From an uncultured Schlesneria sp. (lineage in GTDB: Bacteria > Planctomycetota > Planctomycetia > Planctomycetales > Planctomycetaceae), in NCBI GenBank assembly GCA_903834925.1, contig CAILLA010000146.1:1-64000 (forward strand): a stretch of DNA of 64,000 nt, in the 5' to 3' direction. This document shows positions 2,386 to 53,305 of this stretch, one piece after another. How positions within the stretch are numbered: the stretch's first letter is position 1; the number at the start of each line of letters is the position of its first letter. The translations under genes and the position numbers were made by a program. Under the pieces are notes generated by a model. It saw only the letters and a program-made list of their open reading frames with translations. It did no database searches and was not told the DNA's origin.

Positions 2386-3603
2386 ATGTCCGTCGACACA
2401 TTTTCATTATCTCGTTACCGACACTCCAGTTGGTGGTCTTGGCTGGCTTTGACGGCTGTTGTCACCTTTACTGTCGTGGTATCGATCGTGAAGGGCCAGG
2501 AACGTTCCGTTACACCTGCTTATCAGTCTGCCGTTGTCCATTGGTTTGCGGGTGAACCGCTTTACAACATGGAAGGACATGGGTTTCTCTACCTTCCGCA
2601 AGCGGCACTGACTTTTGCACCCTGGGCCATGTTGCCTCATTCGGCCAGCGAACTCGTTTGGCGCTGGTGCATGATCGGTGTTTTGGCGGCGAGTTGCATC
2701 CGGCTTACGCGGCTTTTGGGAGGTGATGATCGCTGGTTTTTTGCAATTTCGGCATCTTCCGTCGTTCTGGCGTGGGGATGTGCCAGAAATGGGCAATCGA
2801 CGCTGCTTATTACGGGATTGATGATCCTGGCTGCGGCAGATCTCAGTGAAGCTCGCTGGTGGCGGGCTACGATCCTTCTTTCACTCGCCTTCGCGTTCAA
2901 ACCCTTGGCGATTGTCATGATTCTGCTTACTGCCGTCGTCTATCCACAAACATCCTGGCGACTCGCGATCGGTTTATTGTTTGTCGCGGTTGTTCCGTTC
3001 CTGACTCAACGACCTGATTATGTGATTTCACAGTATCGGGCTTGTGTCCAGAATCTGGAAATCACGTTCGAAGTCGGTGAGACTGGACTCTGGGCTCAAT
3101 TTTTTGGCATGCTGCAAGTCGCAGGAATTGAATTCCCTTCGCCGGTACGAACAGCAATCCGATTGTTGGCTGCGGCGACAACCTTGTTTGCCTGTTGGAA
3201 AGCCTCAAGGATTTTGGCGCCGGAACGGAGTGCCTTTTATTTATTCTCATTCGCAAGTTGTTATTTGATGTTGTTTAACTCGCGTACTGAAGGAAACACG
3301 TACACGATGATCGGACCGGTTTACGGTGCCTTACTGGCCGAAGCCACGTTTCGGTTGAAGAACCGGACATCGACGGCATGGATGATCGCTGCGGTAGTCC
3401 TGACCGTGGCAAACTATGAATTGGCGGTATTAGTGTCACCCCGGCCTAAAGCGATCTGGATTTCACCATTGGTATGCGTTGGTGTGACGGGTTATCTAGT
3501 GTTTCGCCTGATTGAAGAAATCAAAGCCGCCGTATCCGAAAAGAAATCTGCTGAAAAGCACGCGTTTGAAAATCGAATTCACGATCAGTCAGTTGCTGCC
3601 TGA
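2386..3603 (+). CDS. GT87/DUF2029-type polytopic membrane glycosyltransferase
   Basis: 405 aa. The ATG at 2386 is preceded by AGGGAGG six bases upstream, which is much better than the ATG at 2344. Around ten hydrophobic segments run through the protein. The first extracytoplasmic loop carries the pattern VHWFAGEPLYNMEGHGFLY followed by PWAMLP, typical of the DUF2029/GT87 family of polyprenyl-phosphate-mannose-dependent transferases. It is expected to transfer a hexose from a lipid-linked donor to a cell-surface glycan. The C-terminus (about 25 residues) is charged and cytoplasmic. It stands alone and is followed by a REP pair. Donor and acceptor are not predictable. Confidence 0.75.
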   Translation: MSVDTFSLSRYRHSSWWSWLALTAVVTFTVVVSIVKGQERSVTPAYQSAVVHWFAGEPLYNMEGHGFLYLPQAALTFAPWAMLPHSASELVWRWCMIGVLAASCIRLTRLLGGDDRWFFAISASSVVLAWGCARNGQSTLLITGLMILAAADLSEARWWRATILLSLAFAFKPLAIVMILLTAVVYPQTSWRLAIGLLFVAVVPFLTQRPDYVISQYRACVQNLEITFEVGETGLWAQFFGMLQVAGIEFPSPVRTAIRLLAAATTLFACWKASRILAPERSAFYLFSFASCYLMLFNSRTEGNTYTMIGPVYGALLAEATFRLKNRTSTAWMIAAVVLTVANYELAVLVSPRPKAIWISPLVCVGVTGYLVFRLIEEIKAAVSEKKSAEKHAFENRIHDQSVAA

Positions 3604-3667
3604 AACTTTAGAGTGTCGTCAAAGAGTGTGATGCCTGGTGGCGACACGCAGTTGAGGTTGTTAGTCC

Positions 3668-3731
3668 TTTATCGTGTGGGCTTTACCCGGCACAAGATCT
3701 TACATGTAGCACGGGCTAAAGCCCATGCTAC
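3668..3731. repeat. REP pair, family 2 copy 1
   Basis: Two adjacent hairpins: an imperfect one over 3673-3694 (TGTGGGCT...GGCACA) and a long one over 3706-3731 (GTAGCACGGGCT, two-base loop, AGCCCATGCTAC). The same pair in the same order recurs at 55559-55622 with only scattered differences. It sits in the convergent gap between the GT87 gene and ddl. Confidence 0.8.
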
Positions 3732-3744
3732 GTAGTCGATTGTC

Positions 3745-4776
3745 TCAGAATTCAAACAGGTCATTTCCGATCAAATCGGCGGATGGTTGAATCCGCGCCC
3801 CAAACGCGTGTGGTCTGAGTTCATGTTGAGCTTGAGAATCCTGTGGATTTTCCTTGCAACAAGACCGGACGATCCGGTCACACAACGTCACGAAATCAAT
3901 TCCGATTCGTGCCGCAGCTTTCGGAAGCAGGCTGTGATCAGTGAAGCCGGGAATTGTGTTGATTTCAAGAACCCAAGGTTGATTCTGTGCGTCCAGCCGA
4001 AGATCGACTCGTGTTAATCCACTTGTTCCTAACGCCAAACAGGCGTTTTGAGCGACGAGTTCCATCTGTTTAATAACATCACGCGGAACATCCGCGTTAA
4101 AGACATAGCGAGTTCCATCGTCTTCGTACTTCGCTCGCCAATCAAAGAACTCACGATCCGTTTCAATTTTTATTGCTGGTAGGGTTTGCAAGTCGATCAG
4201 GCCGACAGTCCATTCGGTCCCTTCGATCATTGTTTCGATAACACCAAAGACGTCATATTGAAAACAAAGCTTCAATGCGTTCGAGAGTTGTTCAGGGGTT
4301 CGAACAATACTGACACCTAGACTCGACCCCTGCGTATCTGGTTTAACGACCAGCGGATAACCAATTTCAGCCGCGTTTCGCGAAAGTTCTTGCAAGTCGT
4401 TGTTGTAATGGATTAACGAATAACGAGGGGTAGGAACTCCAAACTGTTCGAAGCGTTCCTTCGCTGCTGATTTGCTGAACGCCAATCGGGAGGCCAGAGC
4501 GCTACTTCCTGTATAAGGGACGTTCGCACCATCGAGAAGTTGTTGAACCTGTCCGTCTTCTCCAAATCGTCCGTGGAGCGCGATAAATGCAACGTCAAAT
4601 TGAGACCAGTCGATCCCTGAAAGCTCAACTATCGCGGGATCGAGATGCAGAACGCGATGCCCTGACTGAGCAAGTGCCTCTGCCACCGCCATACCACTCT
4701 TCAAACTGACGGTCCGTTCGTCTGAATCACCTCCAGCAAGAACGGCCACACGCAACGACAATCCCCTATCCAACAT
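3745..4776 (-). CDS. ddl: D-alanine--D-alanine ligase
   Basis: 343 aa from the ATG at 4776, which has GGGAAG six bases upstream; a longer ORF start at 4812 is less likely. This ATP-grasp enzyme makes D-Ala-D-Ala for the peptidoglycan stem peptide. Visible family features are the N-terminal VAVLAGGDSDERTVSLKSG, the FIALHGRFGEDGQ loop, VVKPDTQGSSLGVSIV (ATP-binding) and the metal-binding LEINTIPGFTDHSL near residue 280. The C-terminus extends some 30 polar residues beyond the usual end. It is the third gene of a murC-murB-ddl run on one strand, 265 bp after murB, so it may have its own promoter. Confidence 0.96.
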   Translation of the reverse strand: MLDRGLSLRVAVLAGGDSDERTVSLKSGMAVAEALAQSGHRVLHLDPAIVELSGIDWSQFDVAFIALHGRFGEDGQVQQLLDGANVPYTGSSALASRLAFSKSAAKERFEQFGVPTPRYSLIHYNNDLQELSRNAAEIGYPLVVKPDTQGSSLGVSIVRTPEQLSNALKLCFQYDVFGVIETMIEGTEWTVGLIDLQTLPAIKIETDREFFDWRAKYEDDGTRYVFNADVPRDVIKQMELVAQNACLALGTSGLTRVDLRLDAQNQPWVLEINTIPGFTDHSLLPKAAARIGIDFVTLCDRIVRSCCKENPQDSQAQHELRPHAFGARIQPSADLIGNDLFEF

Positions 4777-44428: not shown

Positions 44429-44961
44429 ACATCGTTCCTTCCAGGCGAGCCGAGGATGTTAATCCTCGGATTCTTTTGAAATTGTCTGCTCTTGATGAAC
44501 TTAACGTTCGAATCGTCGCCAAAATTCCGCAGTTCATGGAACGGGATCTCCTGGCGACCCGCTTGTAGCGGCTCGCGACTTTCTCGGCGTGTCGCCGCCC
44601 CTGATTCTTTCAAAATTAAATAATAAAACGACAAGAACTTTACAACCAAACAGAGCCAGTGTCAATGCAAATTCTTGAAAATAAGATAAATGACGTCAAA
44701 CTTATTTGAGGATCGTTGTGGGGATATTGATCGCACTCGCATTGCAGTCGAAGGAAGATTTGAGAACGGAAAACGGACAACGCAGCGATTTGGTTGTTTT
44801 TCGCTCCTTTGTCGTCCCTTGTTCATTATCCGTTCGCGGATTTGCGAACTTGAGTGGAAATCGCTCCAATATGCAACGACCGCTTCAACCTGGGACTGCG
44901 GGGTCGTAAAAGTTCATTTCCGTCGTGAGCGACCTAAAAAAAGCCCTTGAGGAAGATCACC

Positions 44962-46404
44962 GTGGATGACGGAAGTTCAAATGTGGTAAAGGTGGAAGAT
45001 GTCCACGCTGAACAGGACGAAAAGAATCCTGCGGCGACTGTGACAAGAAAACGATTTGCTGTTGCTTTTTCATTTCCCGGCGAACATCGCAGGTATGTCG
45101 AGCAGATCGCCGATGCCTTAGCGGCAAAGTTGTCCAAGAGTCGCGTATTTTGCGATGGATACCACGAAGCGGAACTGGCCCGCCTGAATTTGGACACTCA
45201 CTTACAAAAGATTTACCATGACGATTCTGAGTTGATTGTTGTGGTGCTCTGTAAAGAGTACGACGAGAAGAAATGGTGCAGGCTCGAATCCCGGGCGATC
45301 CGCGATCTAATTGAAACAGGGCGGAGTGGTCACATCATGCCCGTGCGGATTGCGGAAGGCGACGTGAAAGGGGTTTTCGGAATTGATGGATGCGTTGAGG
45401 TCAAGGATCGCCCTGCGTCCGAAATCGCCGGCCTGATCCTCGAACGACTTTCGCAAATTACCGGGCAAAGCATTGTGTCGTTGCCATCATACTTTCCTCC
45501 GCTTGAGAAGCCACTTCAGGATGGCGAGCCGGCCAGCGAAACAGTGCCAGATGCCGCGAAGAAGAAACGGCAGGATGGCGTCAATCAGTTGAAAGCTGCC
45601 GTAATCGAGATCCTTCAATCAGAAAAGACGCTTGAGTTCATTTTGAAGCGAAATAAAATTTCGACGCAAACGTCTGCCTTCGAACTCGCCAAGAAAATGT
45701 TCGCGGTTGTTCCGACATACCACGACAATGCAGAGAAGTACTGCACCCCAATGTGCTTTCTCAAGAACTGCGACCCACAAGATACGCGGTTCGCTAAACC
45801 TCCTTCCGACGCGACAACTGCAATCTACGCGAATCTGTGGAAACTCGCAGCTTTACTTGCACCCGTTTCATTCGTGCTCGAGGACGACGATGCGATTAAC
45901 AAGATGGTGACAAGTGCCACAAGAAGCGCGAAAGTCGATAAGTCGAATCCAACGGTAAGTGGTGCCATCGTCGCAGGTCTCCTGGGACGCCAATTGGACC
46001 TTGATCACCGTGAGACGGTCATATCAAACGGCATTTACTGCTTCGATGGAAGCGAGATGCAGGGATTCGAGCGACTTTACACAAGCGGCGTGCCACCGTT
46101 GACCAACATCGCAGACGACGGTTTAGTTGACGCCGTTACCAGATCGTTAGCCCCGCAACTTGGCTTGCCTGCGGAAGCATCACCCCTCGACGTGAAGACT
46201 GAACTACGCGAGTTGGAAGGCCGCGGTTCATACGTATGCCTCTGTTTTAATCGAGTACTTCATCCAGATTCGGTGCAACGATTGAACAATGCGTTTCCGA
46301 ACCTGTACGTGATCATGAGCCACTCGAAGCTCGAATCAGACATTAATTCATTGGTATTTCGTCAAATCGCTCGTTTGCGAAAAACGGTTGGAGCAGAGGT
46401 ATGA
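44962..46404 (+). CDS. TIR-domain protein, first gene of the conflict-type operon
   Basis: 480 aa from the GTG at 44962 (AGGAAG six bases upstream; the TTG at 44947 overlaps that site). Residues about 32-150 form a TIR domain: RFAVAFSFPGEHRRYVEQIA (beta-A and box 1), CKEYDEKKWCRLE with the probable NADase Glu at about residue 109, and MPVRIAEG. A Lys-rich linker follows. Residues about 205-480 are not recognised but end in a Rossmann-like pattern (GSYVCLCFNRVLHPDSVQRL, LYVIMSHSKLE). This layout (effector plus C-terminal coupling region) fits the third component of MoxR-vWA ternary systems. Its TGA overlaps the MoxR ATG by 4 nt. Confidence 0.82.
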   Translation: MDDGSSNVVKVEDVHAEQDEKNPAATVTRKRFAVAFSFPGEHRRYVEQIADALAAKLSKSRVFCDGYHEAELARLNLDTHLQKIYHDDSELIVVVLCKEYDEKKWCRLESRAIRDLIETGRSGHIMPVRIAEGDVKGVFGIDGCVEVKDRPASEIAGLILERLSQITGQSIVSLPSYFPPLEKPLQDGEPASETVPDAAKKKRQDGVNQLKAAVIEILQSEKTLEFILKRNKISTQTSAFELAKKMFAVVPTYHDNAEKYCTPMCFLKNCDPQDTRFAKPPSDATTAIYANLWKLAALLAPVSFVLEDDDAINKMVTSATRSAKVDKSNPTVSGAIVAGLLGRQLDLDHRETVISNGIYCFDGSEMQGFERLYTSGVPPLTNIADDGLVDAVTRSLAPQLGLPAEASPLDVKTELRELEGRGSYVCLCFNRVLHPDSVQRLNNAFPNLYVIMSHSKLESDINSLVFRQIARLRKTVGAEV

Positions 46405-47369
46405 ATTCGCGCGTCATCAAGGGGGCCGACTTTGCTCACATTCTTTCGGAAAACGAGGAGGGAGCGATCCAGGCGGCGATGGCGGCGAATCGACCGTTGC
46501 TTGTTCGTGGTGAACCGGGTGTCGGCAAGACCCAATTGGCGAAGGCGGCAGCCGTGTCGCTCAAGCGGCCTTTGGTTTCCATGACTGTCGACGCCAACAC
46601 GGAACCACGCGAGATCATGTGGACGTTTGATGCCGTCCAGCGCCTGGCCGAAGCACAGGTCGCCGCCGTGACAACTAAGGACCCAGCTAAACTTCGTTCG
46701 TTGATCGATGTCAAGCGGTTCGTAAAACCCGGCCCGATCTGGTGGGCCTATTCGTGGGACACGGCCAAAGCACAACTTGGTGAACACGAGGAATCCCCCG
46801 CCACTCCGAAAGGATGGACCAGCAAGAAAGGGGTCGTGATTCTGATTGACGAAATCGACAAGGCGGAAAGCGAAGTTCCCAATGGCTTATTGGAAGCACT
46901 CGGCTCGCGTCAATTCCTGCCTCAGGGATGGAATAACCCCATCGCGTTGTCAACTCAGGTCGCCGCGCCGCTGATCATGATCACCACCAACGAAGAACGG
47001 ATGCTGCCCGATGCGTTTGTCCGCCGCTGCTTCGTCCTGCATTTGGAACTCCCCTCCATTTCCGTCCACGAACCGAAAACGTCGGACGAACAAACTTTAG
47101 ACAAGGAATTTGTTCAGTTCCTGCAACTGCGAGGCGACGCACATTTCGGGAAAGATGATCCTGACCTGTTACGCGAGGCGGCGATGATGCTGCTGGCAGA
47201 CCGTCGCTATGCGATGCAGCACAGATTGTTGCCCTTGCCGGGACAAGCAGAATACCTCGACTTTTTACGAGCGATTGTCACGATGACCATCCCGCCGGCG
47301 GATCGGACCAAGGTTTTTGAACAGGTTCGCAGCTATGTCTTTCGCAAGTCGCGCAGGCCACAACGATGA
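46401..47369 (+). CDS. MoxR-type AAA+ ATPase of the TIR operon
   Basis: 322 aa. Walker A RGEPGVGKTQLA near residue 38, a long insert with PREIMWTFDAVQRL and GPIWWAYSW, Walker B VVILIDEIDKAESEVP near 150, sensor 1 LIMITTNEERMLP near 195 and the Arg finger region FVRRCFVLHL. It differs from the housekeeping MoxR at 33231 by its canonical GEPGVGKT loop and the IWWAY insert, so it is a specialised paralogue. 4-nt ATGA overlaps with genes on both sides imply a fixed stoichiometry. Probably the NTP-dependent switch of the system. Confidence 0.9.
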   Translation: MNSRVIKGADFAHILSENEEGAIQAAMAANRPLLVRGEPGVGKTQLAKAAAVSLKRPLVSMTVDANTEPREIMWTFDAVQRLAEAQVAAVTTKDPAKLRSLIDVKRFVKPGPIWWAYSWDTAKAQLGEHEESPATPKGWTSKKGVVILIDEIDKAESEVPNGLLEALGSRQFLPQGWNNPIALSTQVAAPLIMITTNEERMLPDAFVRRCFVLHLELPSISVHEPKTSDEQTLDKEFVQFLQLRGDAHFGKDDPDLLREAAMMLLADRRYAMQHRLLPLPGQAEYLDFLRAIVTMTIPPADRTKVFEQVRSYVFRKSRRPQR

Positions 47370-50300
47370 AATCCGATTCCCGATCATCGACAACCGTGGG
47401 ACGCAGCGATCTAGCCGCCGTGATTGCTGCGCAAAACAAGCGCGCGGTCGAGGCCGCCGTCTCAATGCTGGGACTCGAGATCACGCCGTTGAAACCAGAA
47501 CCTGTCGCGCGACCTCCAGAATTACCCGTTCGACGAAAGCCAAAACCAGCCCCGTTTGTTGAGATTAACTCGTCCGGATATCCGCAAAACATTCAGGACG
47601 TTCGCTTCTGGCATTGGGTGGGCTATCGCCAGCTCGCGCCGCTTGAAAAGGCCGAAAGCACGGATGCCTGGCATGAATGGCATGTGGAAGAAGGCGCGGT
47701 CGCTGCTACGCATCAGTTGCTGGCGGACTGGTCGGAAATTGGTCCACGCCTGCGACATTGCCTGTTGGATGTACGGTCCAGCAGTCAGCCCGATCTCCGC
47801 AAACTCGTGGCGAAAGTCGCCGAGCGGGAGTTACTTGTTGACATTCCCTGGAGAAAGAAACGCCGGTGGGGTGCCGAAGTCTTTCTTGTCGTCGATAACA
47901 GCATTCGATTGACGTCATTTGCCCCGGATCATGAGGCGATCGTCAGAAAGATCCAGCAGATCCTGCCCGCTGCCAAGGTCCATGTGGTTCAGGGAGCCTC
48001 TCCCGACGCGCTGTGGCATCGTGTCGTCGATGGTCAAACACCGCCGCAATCGCAACCGCGTTTCGTTGCGGCACCGCCGGACGCAACAATTCTGGTGCTC
48101 GGCGACCTGGGCTGCCTTTCGCGAGACGCAAATTTCTGGCGGTTATGGCTGCATTGGGGATTGGACGAGCAACGCAATGGCGCGCGACTGATCGCCCTTG
48201 TCCCGTATAGTACGAAACGAATTGTGACGGCGCTGCGTCAGGTCTATTCGGTCGAATCCTGGCAGTCAGAGAAATTCGCCCTGGATGACCCCGTACTGCG
48301 CGAGGATCTGGTGGAACAGCTGCTGGTTCTGGCCTCGCCGACCCTTCGTTTGGAACCAGGCTTGCTGCGGGACTTGCGTTTGCTGCTACCGAACGCCACG
48401 GATGGTTCGCTGGAGGTCGATGTCTGGAACAGTCCGTTGTTAGTCGGTAATCACCCCGACGGAGCCACGATCGACCGTGACGCGGCACGGCAGCATCTGT
48501 TGCCCAAATTTGAAAAACTACCACAGGAACTGCGCAGGGAAGCGCTCGGCGGTTTGCGAAGATGGCGTTTGCGATGTCGCCATGATCCCGAAGTCTGGTT
48601 TGAAGAAGTTCTTTGTTTGTCACCCGAATCCCAGTCGCTCCTCCCACAACAAGATCTCGCCGACGCCAGAGCCTCGGTACGTCAGTTCTACATCGACAGG
48701 AAGTCAAACAATGGTCGCAGTGGGCACGTCAAAGTCTGGATGTACAACGCGACGGATCGATTGACCGACTTTGCCTATCAGGATGCCGACGTCGGCCCGT
48801 TGCTACGGGAGACGCGCCGGGAATTACATGAAGAACCAGACGCAATACTTGCCGGAACCGATTTACGGGAATTGCCTGCTGGCCCGTTGCGTCAGTTTCG
48901 CATCGATATTGAAGATGACCAGTTGCGAGTGGCAAATATCAACGCCCCTGGAACGGTCACCGGTTCGATCACGATGTCGGCCTCGCTGACGGGATCGGTT
49001 TCGCAAATCGAAATCGGTTCAACAGGCGAGCTCATCAACGACGCCTTTTGGAAAACGGGTAAGCCGGATTTTGTTTGTGATTATGACACCGACGAATACG
49101 GAGCGTGGTTTGAGTTTTCTGTTGAGCGAGCTGCGGGCCAGGGAAACGTTACCCAGCGCATGCGCTGGATCAGGCCCGGGACATTCATGATGGGCTCGCC
49201 GACGAATGAAATCGGACGAAATAAGGACGAAGTCCAACATTTAGTCACGCTCAGTCGCGGCTATTGGCTGGCAGACACGGCCTGTACTCAGGAGCTGTGG
49301 ACGGCGGTGACTGAGAGAAATCCAAGTTTTTTTATTGGCGAGCGCCGACCCGTCGAGAACGTGAATTACAACGACGTTTCCGAGTTTCTTGATCAGTTGG
49401 CGAGTAAAGTGCCTGGTTTGCAACCCGCACTCCCGACCGAGGCCCAATGGGAAAATGCCTGTCGCGCCGCGACGGAAACGCCGTTTAGTTTCGGCGAAAC
49501 CATCACCGCCGAGCAGGCCAATTTCAACGAAGATAATCTCAATCGCAAAAATCAAAAAGGAACGAATCGTCAAGATACAGTTCAGGTGAAATCACTCCCG
49601 TGCAATCGTTGGGGATTGTATCAGATGCATGGCAATGTTTCGGAATGGTGTTCCGACTGGTATGGAGAATATTCGCCGCAATCGCAGTTCGACCCAACTG
49701 GGCCAAAACGAGGGACGAGTCGTGTGGTGCGCGGCGGTAGTCGGTATCGCAACGCTCGCCGCATGCGGTCAGCATGCCGGGACCGGAATGCCCCGGGTGA
49801 CCGTTACCGGAACTTGGGATTCCGCCTCCTGAGTGCTGTCTTGTCGGAGCCTACCAACGTGGCACAGGTGCCCGTTGCGGAACGGGGGACGGAGCAGACT
49901 TGGTTCGGCGGCGACGATCAATTTTTTCTGGAAAAGACGATTTTCGTCGATGACGACAAACCTGCCCATGTCCCATTGAGTCGCCGCAGCCAAATCCAGA
50001 TCCAAACGAACCTTGAATCAATCTCTTTTCAACAGATGAAAAAACCTGACTGGGCTGTTGAGTACGGCCGCGATCTGTTCGGAATCTATGCCGACTTTGA
50101 AGTCAAGGTGGATTTGAGTAACGACGGCGTCCGGCAGCGGCTGCGCTGGATACCGCCAGGACACTTTCAGATGGGATCACCGGAATCAGAGCCGGGCCGA
50201 CGAGAGGATGAGGTATTGCACCCTGTCGTTATCTCGACCGGTTTTTGGATGTTCGACACTCCTTGTACACAGAGACTGTGGCAAACCCTGATGCTGGAAA

Positions 50301-50941
50301 GCAATGCAAGCAAGTTTCAAGACCCAGATCGCCCCGTCGAAAACGTTGACTGGGAAGACGCATTGAGATTTGCGACCCTGCTCGCCGAACGAGTTGATTT
50401 GCAGTTCACACTTCCGACGGAAGCACAATGGGAATACGCCTGTCGGGGCGGAACCTCGACGGCAATTTACACTGGCCCCTTGGAAATCCGAGGCGATGCC
50501 AACGCCCCGGCGCTCGATCCAATCGCCTGGTACGGAGGCAACTGCGGGCACAAGTACGACTTGGAAACAAGAGAGAACGTCACATGGCTCGTTGATAAGC
50601 AATATTCCTTCGAGGAGGGCGGAACTAGAAAAGTCAAGAAAAAAAAGCCGAATCCTTGGGGGCTGTGCGACATGTTGGGCAATGTCTGGGAATGGTGTCA
50701 TGACTGGTATGCAGATTATCCCGAGTTGCCCCAGACAGACCCCGTTGGGCCAGAAACCGGCTCGAATCGTGTGGTTCGCGGCGGCAGTTGGAGCCCCCAT
50801 GCTCTCAACGTGCGGTCAGCCAGCCGGCACGCGAATCACCCCGATAACCGGAATCGGAACCTGGGCTTCCGCCTCCTGAGTTCAGCCAGTCCGATCGCAT
50901 CCCGTCCGGCCCCCCCAAGTCCGTCCCCGCCGAACAAGTGA
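47366..50941 (+). CDS. vWA-like protein with two FGE/C-type-lectin (CLec) domains
   Basis: 1191 aa. Residues 1-165 are unassigned. Residues about 168-345 look like a vWA domain: FLVVDNSIRL (D-x-S of a MIDAS) at 177-179 and ILVLGDLGC at 247. Residues about 345-560 are linker/unknown. Two FGE-sulfatase (SUMF1/EgtB-like) domains follow at about 564-826 and 893-1175, each preceded by a Lys-Pro-Asp-x-x-x-x-Tyr segment. Hallmarks RMRWIRPGTFMMGSP, TEAQWENACR and NVSEWCSDWY in the first; RLRWIPPGHFQMGSP, PTEAQWEYACR and NVWEWCHDWY in the second. The Cys pair of true formylglycine-generating enzymes (GGSYxCxxSYC) is absent, so these are binding domains, not oxidases. Codons 785-823 and 1134-1172 are DGR-like variable repeats. 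Likely the target sensor. Confidence 0.88.
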   Translation: MKSDSRSSTTVGRSDLAAVIAAQNKRAVEAAVSMLGLEITPLKPEPVARPPELPVRRKPKPAPFVEINSSGYPQNIQDVRFWHWVGYRQLAPLEKAESTDAWHEWHVEEGAVAATHQLLADWSEIGPRLRHCLLDVRSSSQPDLRKLVAKVAERELLVDIPWRKKRRWGAEVFLVVDNSIRLTSFAPDHEAIVRKIQQILPAAKVHVVQGASPDALWHRVVDGQTPPQSQPRFVAAPPDATILVLGDLGCLSRDANFWRLWLHWGLDEQRNGARLIALVPYSTKRIVTALRQVYSVESWQSEKFALDDPVLREDLVEQLLVLASPTLRLEPGLLRDLRLLLPNATDGSLEVDVWNSPLLVGNHPDGATIDRDAARQHLLPKFEKLPQELRREALGGLRRWRLRCRHDPEVWFEEVLCLSPESQSLLPQQDLADARASVRQFYIDRKSNNGRSGHVKVWMYNATDRLTDFAYQDADVGPLLRETRRELHEEPDAILAGTDLRELPAGPLRQFRIDIEDDQLRVANINAPGTVTGSITMSASLTGSVSQIEIGSTGELINDAFWKTGKPDFVCDYDTDEYGAWFEFSVERAAGQGNVTQRMRWIRPGTFMMGSPTNEIGRNKDEVQHLVTLSRGYWLADTACTQELWTAVTERNPSFFIGERRPVENVNYNDVSEFLDQLASKVPGLQPALPTEAQWENACRAATETPFSFGETITAEQANFNEDNLNRKNQKGTNRQDTVQVKSLPCNRWGLYQMHGNVSEWCSDWYGEYSPQSQFDPTGPKRGTSRVVRGGSRYRNARRMRSACRDRNAPGDRYRNLGFRLLSAVLSEPTNVAQVPVAERGTEQTWFGGDDQFFLEKTIFVDDDKPAHVPLSRRSQIQIQTNLESISFQQMKKPDWAVEYGRDLFGIYADFEVKVDLSNDGVRQRLRWIPPGHFQMGSPESEPGRREDEVLHPVVISTGFWMFDTPCTQRLWQTLMLESNASKFQDPDRPVENVDWEDALRFATLLAERVDLQFTLPTEAQWEYACRGGTSTAIYTGPLEIRGDANAPALDPIAWYGGNCGHKYDLETRENVTWLVDKQYSFEEGGTRKVKKKKPNPWGLCDMLGNVWEWCHDWYADYPELPQTDPVGPETGSNRVVRGGSWSPHALNVRSASRHANHPDNRNRNLGFRLLSSASPIASRPAPPSPSPPNK
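49718..49834 (+). repeat. variable repeat A (DGR-like), first CLec domain
   Basis: 39 codons from Ser785 to Ser823. Invariant framework VVRGGS...RSA.R...P...R..NLGFRL with variable codons TAT, CGC, AAC, CGC, CGC, TGC, GAC, AAT, GCC, GGT, GAC and TAC, all NNY. Its 3' end (GGATTCCGCCTCCTGAG) is diverged from copies B and C, so it may no longer be a homing target. Confidence 0.6.
50765..50881 (+). repeat. variable repeat B (DGR-like), second CLec domain
   Basis: 39 codons from Asn1134 to Ser1172. Variable positions read AGC, CCC, CAT, CTC, AAC, AGC, CAC, AAT, CAC, GAT, AAC and AAT. The 3' end GGCTTCCGCCTCCTGAGTTC continues into sequence shared with copy C, a candidate initiation-of-mutagenic-homing (IMH) segment. 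Confidence 0.65.
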
Positions 50942-51024: not shown

Positions 51025-51760
51025 TTTGTCCCCTTTGGGACACCCGATAATAGTGCACCGTTTCAACGGTGGGGCCGCGAAAAGACCACGCAAACAGGAG
51101 TCCCCTAAGGGACGGCAGATTCGAACTTCACCTCGCGTCAGACGTTTGGCCTCTTTAGGCCGGAAGATGATGCGATTGGACATCGTTTGCGGGAGCGTGA
51201 ACGTTGTCGCCGATCCGATTTGTCTTCCGGACCAAAGGTCCAACCGTTCAAATAGCCCAGCCCATCGGGCTGGGAACGGGCCACTTGATGACAAGAAGGC
51301 CTGAAGGGCCGACCATTCGCCGATCTTGTCATGGCACGTCGGAATTGACGGGAAGAGCATCAGATGCCCCGGTCGTCGCCATTGGAATATGGGTCATATG
51401 TCGCAAACATTGATCCGAGATTGATGGACGATCTTTGTGGAATTCACAATCGACGGAGCGAAGACCGACGTCGAACGGTCGGCCCTTCAGGCCTTTTGGG
51501 ATTCTTAATGGGCGCGTCCTAGCCCGATGGGCTAGGATATTGCAACGAATGGCCCTTTGGGCCGGAAGAGAGTTCATCGTCGCGGATTTTCTATGACGAC
51601 TCATACGTGAAAAAACACCGATAATTTTGACATCCGCGCGCTTCCGCTACGAACACGAATTGAAAATCTGTCGTCCCTTAGGGGACTCGAGATGAAACGT
51701 GGATCATCGATCCCCGCTGTTGAAACGGTGGGCTATTATCGGGTGGGCCAAGGGGACAAA
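51025..51760. repeat. 736-bp fold-back (inverted repeat) element
   Basis: The left end (TTTGTCCCCTTTGG ... CACCCGATAATAG ... CACCGTTTCAAC) and the reverse complement of the right end (TTTGTCCCCTTGG ... CACCCGATAATAG ... CACCGTTTCAAC) match over about 50 bp. Matching continues inward through TCCCCTAAGGGACG, CTTCCGG..CAAAGG.CC, AGCCCATCGGGCT and AAGGCCTGAAGGGCCGACC to a centre near 51393. Each arm is itself a chain of small palindromes. No ORF is supported. Confidence 0.85.
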
Positions 51761-51789: not shown

Positions 51790-52662
51790 ATGTCCGAGAA
51801 CCGTATGACCACCACTATTACCGAACCACCTGTCTTCGAACCACTTCCGCGCCCACCGAAATGGGCCAGCGGCTATGGTCAGGATGAATTCGGTTACTTT
51901 GCCGAATTCTCGGTGGTGACGGGTTCGCAATATTGGGATTTTGTCACGCAGCGAATGAGATGGATTCCCACTGGCACGTTCCTGATGGGTGCCCAAAAAG
52001 GGGAGCAAACATTTATCGATGACGAGAAACAGCACCGAGTGACGATCAGTAGCGGCTTCTGGATGGCCGATACGACATGTACTCAGGAGTTATGGGAAGT
52101 CGTCATGCGGACGAATCCAAGCCATTTTACAGGCCCGCTTCGTCCGGTCGAGGATGTCAGCTTTGACGACGTGCATGACTTCCTCATCAAATTAAATAAG
52201 CGACTGGGCGCGGGATCGATGGCATTACCAACCGAGGCCCAGTGAGAATATTCCTGTCGCGCGGGGACCAAAACTGCTTTCAGCTTCGGGGAATCAATCA
52301 CCACTGAGCAGGCGAATTTCAACGGGAATTATCCGTACCGCTATTCACACAAGGGGAGTTTCCGCGAAGAAACTGTGGAAGTGAAGTCTCTCGCCGCGAA
52401 TTCTTGGGGGCTGTTTCAGATGCATGGAAACGTTTGGGAATGGTGCTCTGACTTTTACGCACCGTACTCATCAAAGCCCCAACTTGATCCTGTCGGCCCC
52501 CAGTCCGGCTCGGATCGCGTGTTGCGCGGCGGCAGTTGGAGCGACAGCGCTCGCAACATGCGGTCAGCCTGTCGGCGCTGGTATGACCCATGTGACGGTG
52601 GCCGCAACCTCGGCTTCCGCCTCATGAGTTCAGCCAGTCCAGTCCAGCCCGGCCCCCCCTAG
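51790..52662 (+). pseudogene. third CLec (FGE-sulfatase-like) gene, interrupted by TGA
   Basis: 290-residue frame with one in-frame stop. After a short leader, WASGYGQDEFGYFAEFSV introduces an FGE domain: QRMRWIPTGTFLMG, TTCTQELWEVVM, then MALPTEAQ followed by TGA at 52243-52245 exactly where the conserved Trp (TGG) of PTEAQWE stands. The same frame then continues intact with EYSCRAGTKTAFSFGE, MHGNVWEWCSDFY and a complete C-terminus including variable repeat C. Everything else is preserved, so the TGG-to-TGA change is recent, or a base-calling error. TGA is the normal stop elsewhere in the window, so recoding as Trp is not general. An ATG at 51805 is an alternative start. Confidence 0.85.
52513..52629 (+). 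repeat. variable repeat C (DGR-like), third CLec gene
   Basis: 39 codons. Variable positions read AGC, GAC, AGC, CGC, AAC, TGT, CGC, TAT, GAC, TGT, GAC and GGC, again NNY. The framework is nearly identical to copy B at the nucleotide level, although the domains upstream differ widely. Confidence 0.65.
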
Positions 52663-53305
52663 TCTATCCCCGCCGAACAAGTGGGTGGTTCTCGCACGAA
52701 GCCGAGGGACGAATCCGTTGAGAATGATCCGAGTACATTCTGATGTCACAACGCCTTGCACCAGATCAATTTGTCCCTTGTTGTATCCGATAATCGCCAC
52801 CGTTTCAGGATCGAGGCCGCAAAAACGCTTCTGCCACGCCTGAAGAGTGGAGGAGAAATCGAAGCACGGGGTGCCACGGTTTCGAATTATTCGGGTCCGA
52901 AACTTGACTCAATGAATCAAGTGTTAGGATTTCCGCAAAAGTAGCCTTCTCGCTCCGCGAGAAGAAAGCCGAATTGCCATTTACCGAGTGACTCATCAGG
53001 GCTTTCAAGTACCAGTCGAGGTTTGCTGCAATTCGGCTATGCTCTCGCGGAGCGATAGGGCTACTTTGGTCTGGGGCAAAGCCTCGCTGTTGTCTTCGAC
53101 AAGGCCGTGTCTTCATGGTTCAATAACGCGCCCGAAGAACACGGCCTTCCCGAAGACGGTAAAACCGTGGCACCCTTTTGGCAAACCAACACGAGTTGTT
53201 CGTCGGCCTGCTTAGCGACGCCCGTAATAATTTGTTGATAACGTTTGCTCGATCGAATCGTAGACTGACCGGGCAACGTCGTGAAGAATTGTCCGCAGTG
53301 ATTCA
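52663..53305. other. 643-bp region of nested repeats
   Basis: Downstream of the CLec pseudogene. It starts with sequence homologous to the 3' flank of copy B, including a truncated copy of the fold-back left end (about 52770-52830). The nested palindromic element follows (52870-53174). No gene supported. Confidence 0.6.
52870..53174. repeat. family 1 palindromic element with a nested element
   Basis: Outer ends GGTGCCACGGTTT (52870-52882) and AAACCGTGGCACC (53162-53174) match the 100-bp family, but the element is 305 bp. Inside, 52938-52978 and 53028-53067 form near-perfect inverted arms of about 40 bp (AAAGTAGCC ... TCGCTCCGCGAGA ... AGCCGAATTGC) around a 50-bp loop. This is a second palindromic element inserted in the first. 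Confidence 0.8.

What the first reader, a model, noticed from the sequence alone, without database searches (positions are those of the whole stretch)
51025..51760. 736-bp fold-back element made of strings of palindromes
The whole inter-gene space between CLec genes B and C is an imperfect inverted repeat centred near 51393. Matching blocks in each arm (TTTGTCCCC, CCCGATAATAG, TCCCCTAAGGGACG, AGCCCATCGGGCT, AAGGCCTGAAGGGCC) appear in mirrored order. A truncated copy of its left end follows gene C. It may be a non-autonomous fold-back transposon, a recombination substrate that duplicated the CLec unit, or a structured RNA.
Basis: seen in the sequence. Interest (0 to 1): 0.68.

Follow-up and report, generated by a model that had tools for sequence, protein, structure and literature searches.

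The report
Nested dead mini-transposons between two genes
The 736-bp fold-back is one small transposon relic sitting inside another; close relatives of both are found beside, or enclosing, single-strand-DNA (IS200-type) transposase genes in sister species, and the inner one still holds a decayed scrap of that gene, so it is probably mobile-element debris rather than a regulatory RNA, although it points to DNA ends for a transposase class thought to have none.

Summary
Confirmed: 51025-51760 is a highly significant imperfect inverted repeat (folding z -21.5; arm alignment 250 versus 75±8.5 for shuffles). It is a composite of two unrelated repeat families, each found alone elsewhere in this 9-Mb Schlesneria-like planctomycete genome and in sister species. 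The outer pair (51025-51121 / 51665-51760) normally encloses 50-100 bp, the inner pair (51223-51322 / 51469-51569) about 30-125 bp. Both arm types share one plan: hairpin A, linker ending in ATAG, hairpin B, spacer, hairpin C, with compensatory stem changes. In two sister genomes the inner arms enclose an intact 151-aa IS200-type (Y1/HUH) transposase gene exactly where the window has its 146-bp centre; that centre is a decayed 3' piece of such a gene (best hit in 64 kb). Outer arms lie beside a second transposase (37-38% identical) in four genomes. So this is a nested pair of non-autonomous, probably dead, Y1-transposase elements. The transposases carry the Y---Q--HH motif of 'subclass 1.2', reported to lack hairpin ends and IS behaviour; here 11 of 19 genus loci have such ends. 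Mobility was not observed, no clean empty site was found, and no intact cognate transposase was found in this assembly.

The parts
51025..51121 (+). outer left arm: hairpin A (51028-51041 GTCCC..GGGAC), linker ending ATAG (51050-51053), hairpin B (51056-51071 CACCGTTTCAACGGTG), hairpin C (51100-51113)
   Evidence: covariation
51148..51161 (+). extra GGCC hairpin followed by GGAAGA, resembling a lone inner-type hairpin A (remnant)
51223..51322 (+). inner left arm: hairpin A (51229-51241), linker ending ATAG (51252-51255), hairpin B (51256-51274 CCCAGCCCATCGGGCTGGG), hairpin C (51298-51310)
   Evidence: covariation
51346..51443 (+). decayed relic of the 3' coding end of a Y1 (IS200-type) transposase gene, in the centre of the inner element
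   Evidence: nhmmer best hit in the 64-kb window, E 0.005; score versus own-genome transposase relic, z 5.6, 0/200 shuffles
51469..51569 (-). inner right arm (mirror of inner left arm)
51618..51636 (-). 19-nt motif related to CGGATTTCGAAATTGTTGG, 64-70 nt outside the arm in many inner copies
51665..51760 (-). outer right arm (mirror of outer left arm)
52770..52825 (+). decayed copy of the first ~59 nt of the outer left arm, duplicated together with gene 3' end and flank

Best explanation
The 736-bp fold-back is a non-autonomous mobile element relic (inner, about 347 bp, possibly extending to about 51640) nested in the central spacer of a second non-autonomous element (outer). Each is the miniature form of an element associated with a small Y1/HUH tyrosine transposase of the IS200 superfamily. 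The arms carry two or three hairpins with an AG-ending foot 5' of hairpin B; by homology with IS608 TnpA and TnpA-REP, the transposase would bind these hairpins on single-stranded DNA and use the foot as cleavage guide (inferred). The inner element arose by internal deletion of its transposase gene, of which a decayed 3' scrap remains (shown by sequence). Order inferred: outer element inserted downstream of an FGE-domain gene; gene plus left end duplicated; inner element inserted in the upstream copy. Both look immobile now: no intact cognate transposase was found in this assembly.
For: Both arm families occur separately in the own genome (outer alone C62:698-930, 233 bp; inner alone C281:46125-46413, about 290 bp) and in same-genus genomes as inverted pairs. 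Inner arms bracket an intact transposase ORF in two sister genomes (L133 arms 1333-1432/1900-1999, ORF 1446-1901; L131 arms 3347-3451/3914-4018, ORF 3450-3905). Deletion series: G010 copy with aa 1-57 + 130-151 (L067), G001 copy with aa 127-151 (L136), own C83 copy with the last ~40 aa next to a right arm, window centre. Outer arms lie beside a transposase in G005 and in G117, G146 and G167 of another genus (72-76% identical proteins; places). Hairpin covariation: 28 double-change cells versus 4.9 shuffled (outer), 12 versus 3.9 (inner), 0/500 each. 11 of 19 genus Y1 loci with Y---Q--HH have the A-linker-AG-B architecture, against 1 chance hit in about 62 kb. Transposases are PF01797.
Against: No empty site with clean junctions, no target-site signature, no demonstration of movement. 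The nhmmer E-value of the relic is modest (0.005 for 64 kb), and direct pairwise similarity to intact transposase genes was not significant. The link of the outer family to its transposase is adjacency, not enclosure: in G005 the flanking arms point away from the gene. Spacer left over outside the inner element (101 + 95 bp) is longer than the usual 50-100 bp outer centre. In 8 of 19 loci the automatic search found no such arms.
Confidence: 0.84

Rival explanations
1. BIME/REPIN-like mosaic: the arms are ordinary REP-type repeats accumulated by repeated insertion of single units, and their symmetric order around one centre arose stepwise or by chance rather than by insertion of one complete element inside another.
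For: Related loci hold clusters of single arms in alternating orientation (L134, L158, L156, L169, L170), and an extra GGCC hairpin lies at 51148-51161.
Against: Inner and outer pairs each recur as self-contained inverted pairs with characteristic centre lengths, and the inner centre holds a transposase scrap in the right orientation.
Confidence: 0.12
2. A structured intergenic RNA or transcript-end element with a function for the neighbouring FGE-domain genes.
For: Very stable predicted fold and compensatory changes in stems; lies between two co-directional genes.
Against: No Rfam match; same arms occur next to unrelated genes and around transposase genes; the gene locus is not conserved in the genus and gene C is interrupted by a stop.
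Confidence: 0.03
3. The fold-back is the recombination hot spot that duplicated the FGE-domain gene.
For: The duplicated tract runs from the gene through the flank into the outer left arm and fades at about 51083/52825.
Against: No right-arm sequence was found before gene B, the copy after C lacks hairpins, and FGE-domain tandem arrays can arise by unequal crossing-over within the genes themselves.
Confidence: 0.05

Closest known systems
TnpA-Y1 subclass 1.2 (PMC6006769)
   Same: Small PF01797 proteins (148-151 aa) with HUH motif DHIH and tyrosine motif Y---Q--HH (YVANQAAHH, YIENQAEHH; consensus YIKNQKEHH in the paper's table).
   Different: The paper reports this subclass as generally without terminal secondary structures, without IS properties and mostly in Cyanobacteria and Bacteroidetes; here, in Planctomycetota, the genes have hairpin arms and miniature derivatives.
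TIRYT/TIRtron elements and TIR repeats (PMC3733652)
   Same: Y1 transposase gene flanked by long terminal inverted repeats that also form dispersed families of dimers and clusters; the paper mentions many such genes and repeats in the planctomycete R. baltica.
   Different: PMC6006769 discusses TIRYTs under subclass 2.1, which has a Y---NP motif; ours have Y---Q--HH. The GGGGWSAS TIR motif is not seen in the window arms.
REP/REPIN sequences with RAYT (TnpA-REP)
   Same: Hairpins with a tetranucleotide foot 5' of the stem, in inverted pairs, with covarying stems, lineage-specific to a nearby Y1 transposase.
   Different: Foot is NNAG (ATAG here), not GTAG/GTGG; two or three hairpins per arm; copies in tens, not hundreds; protein misses the REP_Tyr NCBIfam cut-off.
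IS200/IS605 insertion sequences and their miniature derivatives
   Same: Transposase matches NF033573 (outer 70.6 bits over cut-off 55; inner 49.9 just below); element enclosing the gene plus internally deleted copies.
   Different: Typical IS200/IS605 ends are single subterminal hairpins without long inverted repeats (general knowledge and PMC6006769).

Membership tests
IS200/IS605 insertion sequence | Y1 HUH transposase encoded between the ends | tested here: met
   Inner family: ORF between arms in L131 and L133, PF01797 66 bits; not in the window copy itself
IS200/IS605 insertion sequence | no long terminal inverted repeats, one subterminal hairpin per end | tested here: not met
   ~100-bp inverted arms with two to three hairpins
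REPIN/RAYT | GTAG or GTGG foot at the hairpin | tested here: not met
   ATAG in both window families; NNAG across lineages, GTAG only in a few
REPIN/RAYT | transposase of the REP_Tyr type | tested here: not met
   NF047646: 19.9 bits against cut-off 80 (outer), no hit (inner)
REPIN/RAYT | inverted hairpin pairs dispersed in intergenic space | tested here: met
TIRYT/TIRtron | Y1 gene bracketed by long inverted repeats that also occur as dispersed repeats | tested here: met
   inner family
TIRYT/TIRtron | transposase of subclass 2.1 (Y---NP) | tested here: not met
   Y---Q--HH in both cognate proteins; class of TIRYTs from PMC6006769
TnpA-Y1 subclass 1.2 | Y---Q--HH tyrosine motif | tested here: met
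   with the description
TnpA-Y1 subclass 1.2 | placement in the subclass 1.2 clade and its C-terminal domain | not tested
   no reference sequences of the subclass at hand
Rfam structured RNA | match to a curated family at gathering score | tested here: not met

The most novel reading that the evidence does not exclude
The subclass 1.2 Y1 transposases, described as having no hairpin ends and no IS behaviour, are in Planctomycetota transposases of a distinct mobile-element family with a conserved compound end (hairpin A, 11-14-nt linker ending NNAG, hairpin B, hairpin C), each transposase lineage with its own cognate ends, giving rise by internal deletion to miniature fold-back elements that nest in each other.
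Probability: 0.5. Interest if true: 0.52.

Novelty: new variant of a known kind. Interest (0 to 1): 0.42.

Why it matters
It supplies candidate DNA substrates for a group of single-strand-DNA transposases that were reported without any, so a simple binding and cleavage test becomes possible; and it shows a graded series from a complete transposase element to a bare fold-back relic, with one relic nested in another. For annotation, it explains a class of striking palindromic intergenic regions in planctomycetes as mobile-element debris rather than regulatory RNA.

Tried and rejected
Rfam on the window and on four loci: nothing. Orthologous empty site: the AAA gene of the window locus finds only 41-55% identical relatives in 4 other genomes, none shown to be a syntenic site. 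A second try with the joined flanks of the C130 copy found the occupied site in G001 and G002 and only one flank in the others, so no clean empty site. Pairwise comparison of the window centre with intact transposase genes was not significant; only the own-genome relic and a profile detected it. A canonical RAYT reading, held at first (notes 1-3 use the word loosely), was dropped after NCBIfam and the Y---Q--HH motif. The CGGATTTCGAAATTGTTGG motif outside inner arms was considered as element end or target; it also occurs beside other repeats and, in one case, seems to be host 5' sequence, so it is left open.

Full report
Observation. The region 51025-51760 is a true inverted repeat. Four mirrored arm pairs are found with 83-96% complementarity. 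The single strand folds at -393.7 kcal/mol against -255±6.4 for dinucleotide shuffles (z -21.5), and the left half aligned to the reverse complement of the right half scores 250 against a shuffled mean of 75 and maximum of 100.5. The element lies between the stop of a two-FGE-domain ORF (47366-50941) and an FGE-domain ORF starting at 51790.

It is a composite. A search of the own genome (G000, 9.02 Mb, 307 contigs) shows that no other place matches the whole 736 bp. Instead two parts recur: the outer arms (query about 1-97 and 641-736) and the inner arms (about 197-298 and 445-559). The outer pair alone is seen at C62:698-930 (233 bp, arms 50 bp apart); the inner pair alone at C281:46125-46413 (about 290 bp). 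In same-genus genomes both occur repeatedly as separate inverted pairs: outer centres are typically 50-100 bp (L032, L132, L141-L144), inner centres about 30-125 bp (L136-L140, L155, L157), against 146 bp in the window. Thirteen of 59 genomes searched match: 11 of the genus (own included), one other member of the family (G036) and one only of the same class (G054). The outer hairpin pattern occurs in 12 of 150 family genomes, 4 of 58 genera, with zero hits for the reversed control. The genus is Schlesneria-like: two of the carriers of the inner-family transposase are records named Schlesneria sp. (inference for the window itself).

Arm anatomy. Both families, though unrelated in sequence, share one plan: a short GC hairpin A, a linker of 11-14 nt ending in ATAG, a longer hairpin B, a spacer, and a short hairpin C. 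Stems covary: in the outer family 28 cells changed on both sides against 4.9 in shuffles, with 97.8% of cells paired; in the inner family 12 against 3.9, 96.3% paired; 0/500 shuffles reach either value. Related rows inflate this control, but slid structures score far lower. This indicates that the folded form of the arms matters; it does not distinguish single-stranded DNA from RNA.

The transposases. A PF01797 (Y1_Tnp) search in the genus placed transposase genes next to these arms. For the inner family, L133 has arm 1333-1432, ORF 1446-1901 (151 aa) and mirrored arm 1900-1999; L131 has two such units; the stop codon lies at the edge of the right arm. The gene therefore occupies exactly the place of the window's 146-bp centre. 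For the outer family, L132 has a 148-aa transposase at 1501-1947 with outer arms 280 bp upstream and 124 bp downstream, and L087, L089 and L090 (G167, G146, G117, another genus of the family) have 72-76% identical transposases about 90 bp from clusters of outer arms. In this family the gene is a neighbour, not an insert between mirrored arms. Inner and outer transposases are 37-38% identical.

Decay series. The G010 copy (L067) encodes residues 1-57 fused to 130-151 with the middle missing; the G001 copy (L136) keeps residues 127-151 at 60% identity; the own C83 copy keeps the last ~40 residues (62-67%) directly before a right arm. A profile of such 3' coding ends, built without the window, has its best hit in the 64-kb window, both strands, at 51346-51443, on the expected strand and between the inner arms (E 0.005); the window centre also aligns to the C83 relic at z 5.6, 0/200. 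So the inner fold-back is a deletion derivative of the transposase-bearing element (moderately strong evidence for the window copy, strong for the family). The own genome has no intact inner or outer transposase in this assembly: best full-length matches are 48% (with an internal stop) and 45%.

Generality. Of 19 Y1 loci with the Y---Q--HH motif in the genus, 11 have the A-linker-AG-B architecture within 700 bp, each lineage with its own hairpin sequences, for example GTCGCGAATGCGAC/GCAGGCATAAAG/CCCGGGGTTTCAACCCCGGG (L037) and GCCGCGTAGCGGC/GACCGAGCATAG/CCTGGGGCAGCTTCTGCCCCAGG (L038). The same scan over about 62 kb of the window outside the element gives one weak chance hit. Further genera (L087, L090, L184) show it too. 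Y---Q--HH is the signature of TnpA-Y1 subclass 1.2, described as generally without terminal structures, without IS properties and mostly in Cyanobacteria and Bacteroidetes (PMC6006769). The assignment here rests on the motif only.

Mechanism, marked. Shown: two families, nested order, shared arm plan, transposase genes enclosed by (inner) or beside (outer) the arms, a transposase relic in the inner centre. Inferred from the known biochemistry of IS608 TnpA and TnpA-REP: hairpin recognition on single-stranded DNA, cleavage guided by the foot, mobilisation of miniature copies in trans. Inferred history: outer element first; then duplication of gene 3' end, flank and outer left end, since the copy after gene C (52770-52825) continues the flank homology; then insertion of the inner element in the outer spacer; then decay. 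A stepwise mosaic of single arms is the main rival, favoured by arm clusters elsewhere.

Comparison. The nearest described things are TIRtrons and TIR repeats (PMC3733652, which notes many tyrosine transposase genes and flanking repeats in the planctomycete R. baltica), REPINs with RAYTs, and IS200/IS605 elements. The element fails at least one tested defining feature of each (foot sequence and protein model for REPIN/RAYT; long inverted ends for IS200/IS605; protein class for TIRYT), while it probably works like all of them. I call it a new variant of a known kind.

Limits. No movement, no empty site, no transcript data; draft assemblies; element copies were counted through capped searches; the outer family's autonomous form is unproven; literature held is open-access only.

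Noticed in passing
window 52925-53085: A second, much more abundant ~160-bp palindromic element: arms AAAGTAGCCTTCTCGCTCCGCGAGAAG (a GTAG tag followed by a hairpin), about 40 scored own-genome copies at 80-92% identity out of 151 candidates. It looks like a canonical GTAG-tagged REPIN, younger than the nested element.
   Followed up: partly
window 52243-52245: Gene C (FGE-sulfatase domain) is interrupted by an in-frame TGA where domain B reads Trp (PTEAQ-stop); it may be a pseudogene or a sequencing error.
   Followed up: no
window 51618-51636 (minus); C135:7431, C263:1824, C281:46461 and others: A motif close to GGGCGGATTTCGAAATTGTTGG stands 64-70 nt outside the inner arms in many copies and also heads an unrelated repeat (TTTCCACCCTGGCTTGTCCAGGTGG; C81, C159, C170). 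10 own-genome hits with up to 2 mismatches versus 0 for the reversed control. Shared target or shared element end: unexplained.
   Followed up: partly
window 44947-50941: TIR-domain protein, MoxR-like AAA ATPase and a long protein ending in two FGE-sulfatase domains stand in a row, reminiscent of ternary conflict systems; not conserved in the genus.
   Followed up: no
G000:C81 (L040 2050-2780): Array of four GATGTCAG-CCCAGGCCATCGGCCTGGG hairpin units in alternating orientation 3' of a Y1 transposase gene with one TAG stop: a BIME-like cluster with the same A-linker-B plan.
   Followed up: partly
G000:C130:3786-3890 versus G002:C17 and G001:C233: At an orthologous site the inner element is about 325 bp with a transposase remnant in the relative G002, but only 105 bp in the own genome, so shrinkage by internal deletion continues after insertion.
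   Followed up: partly
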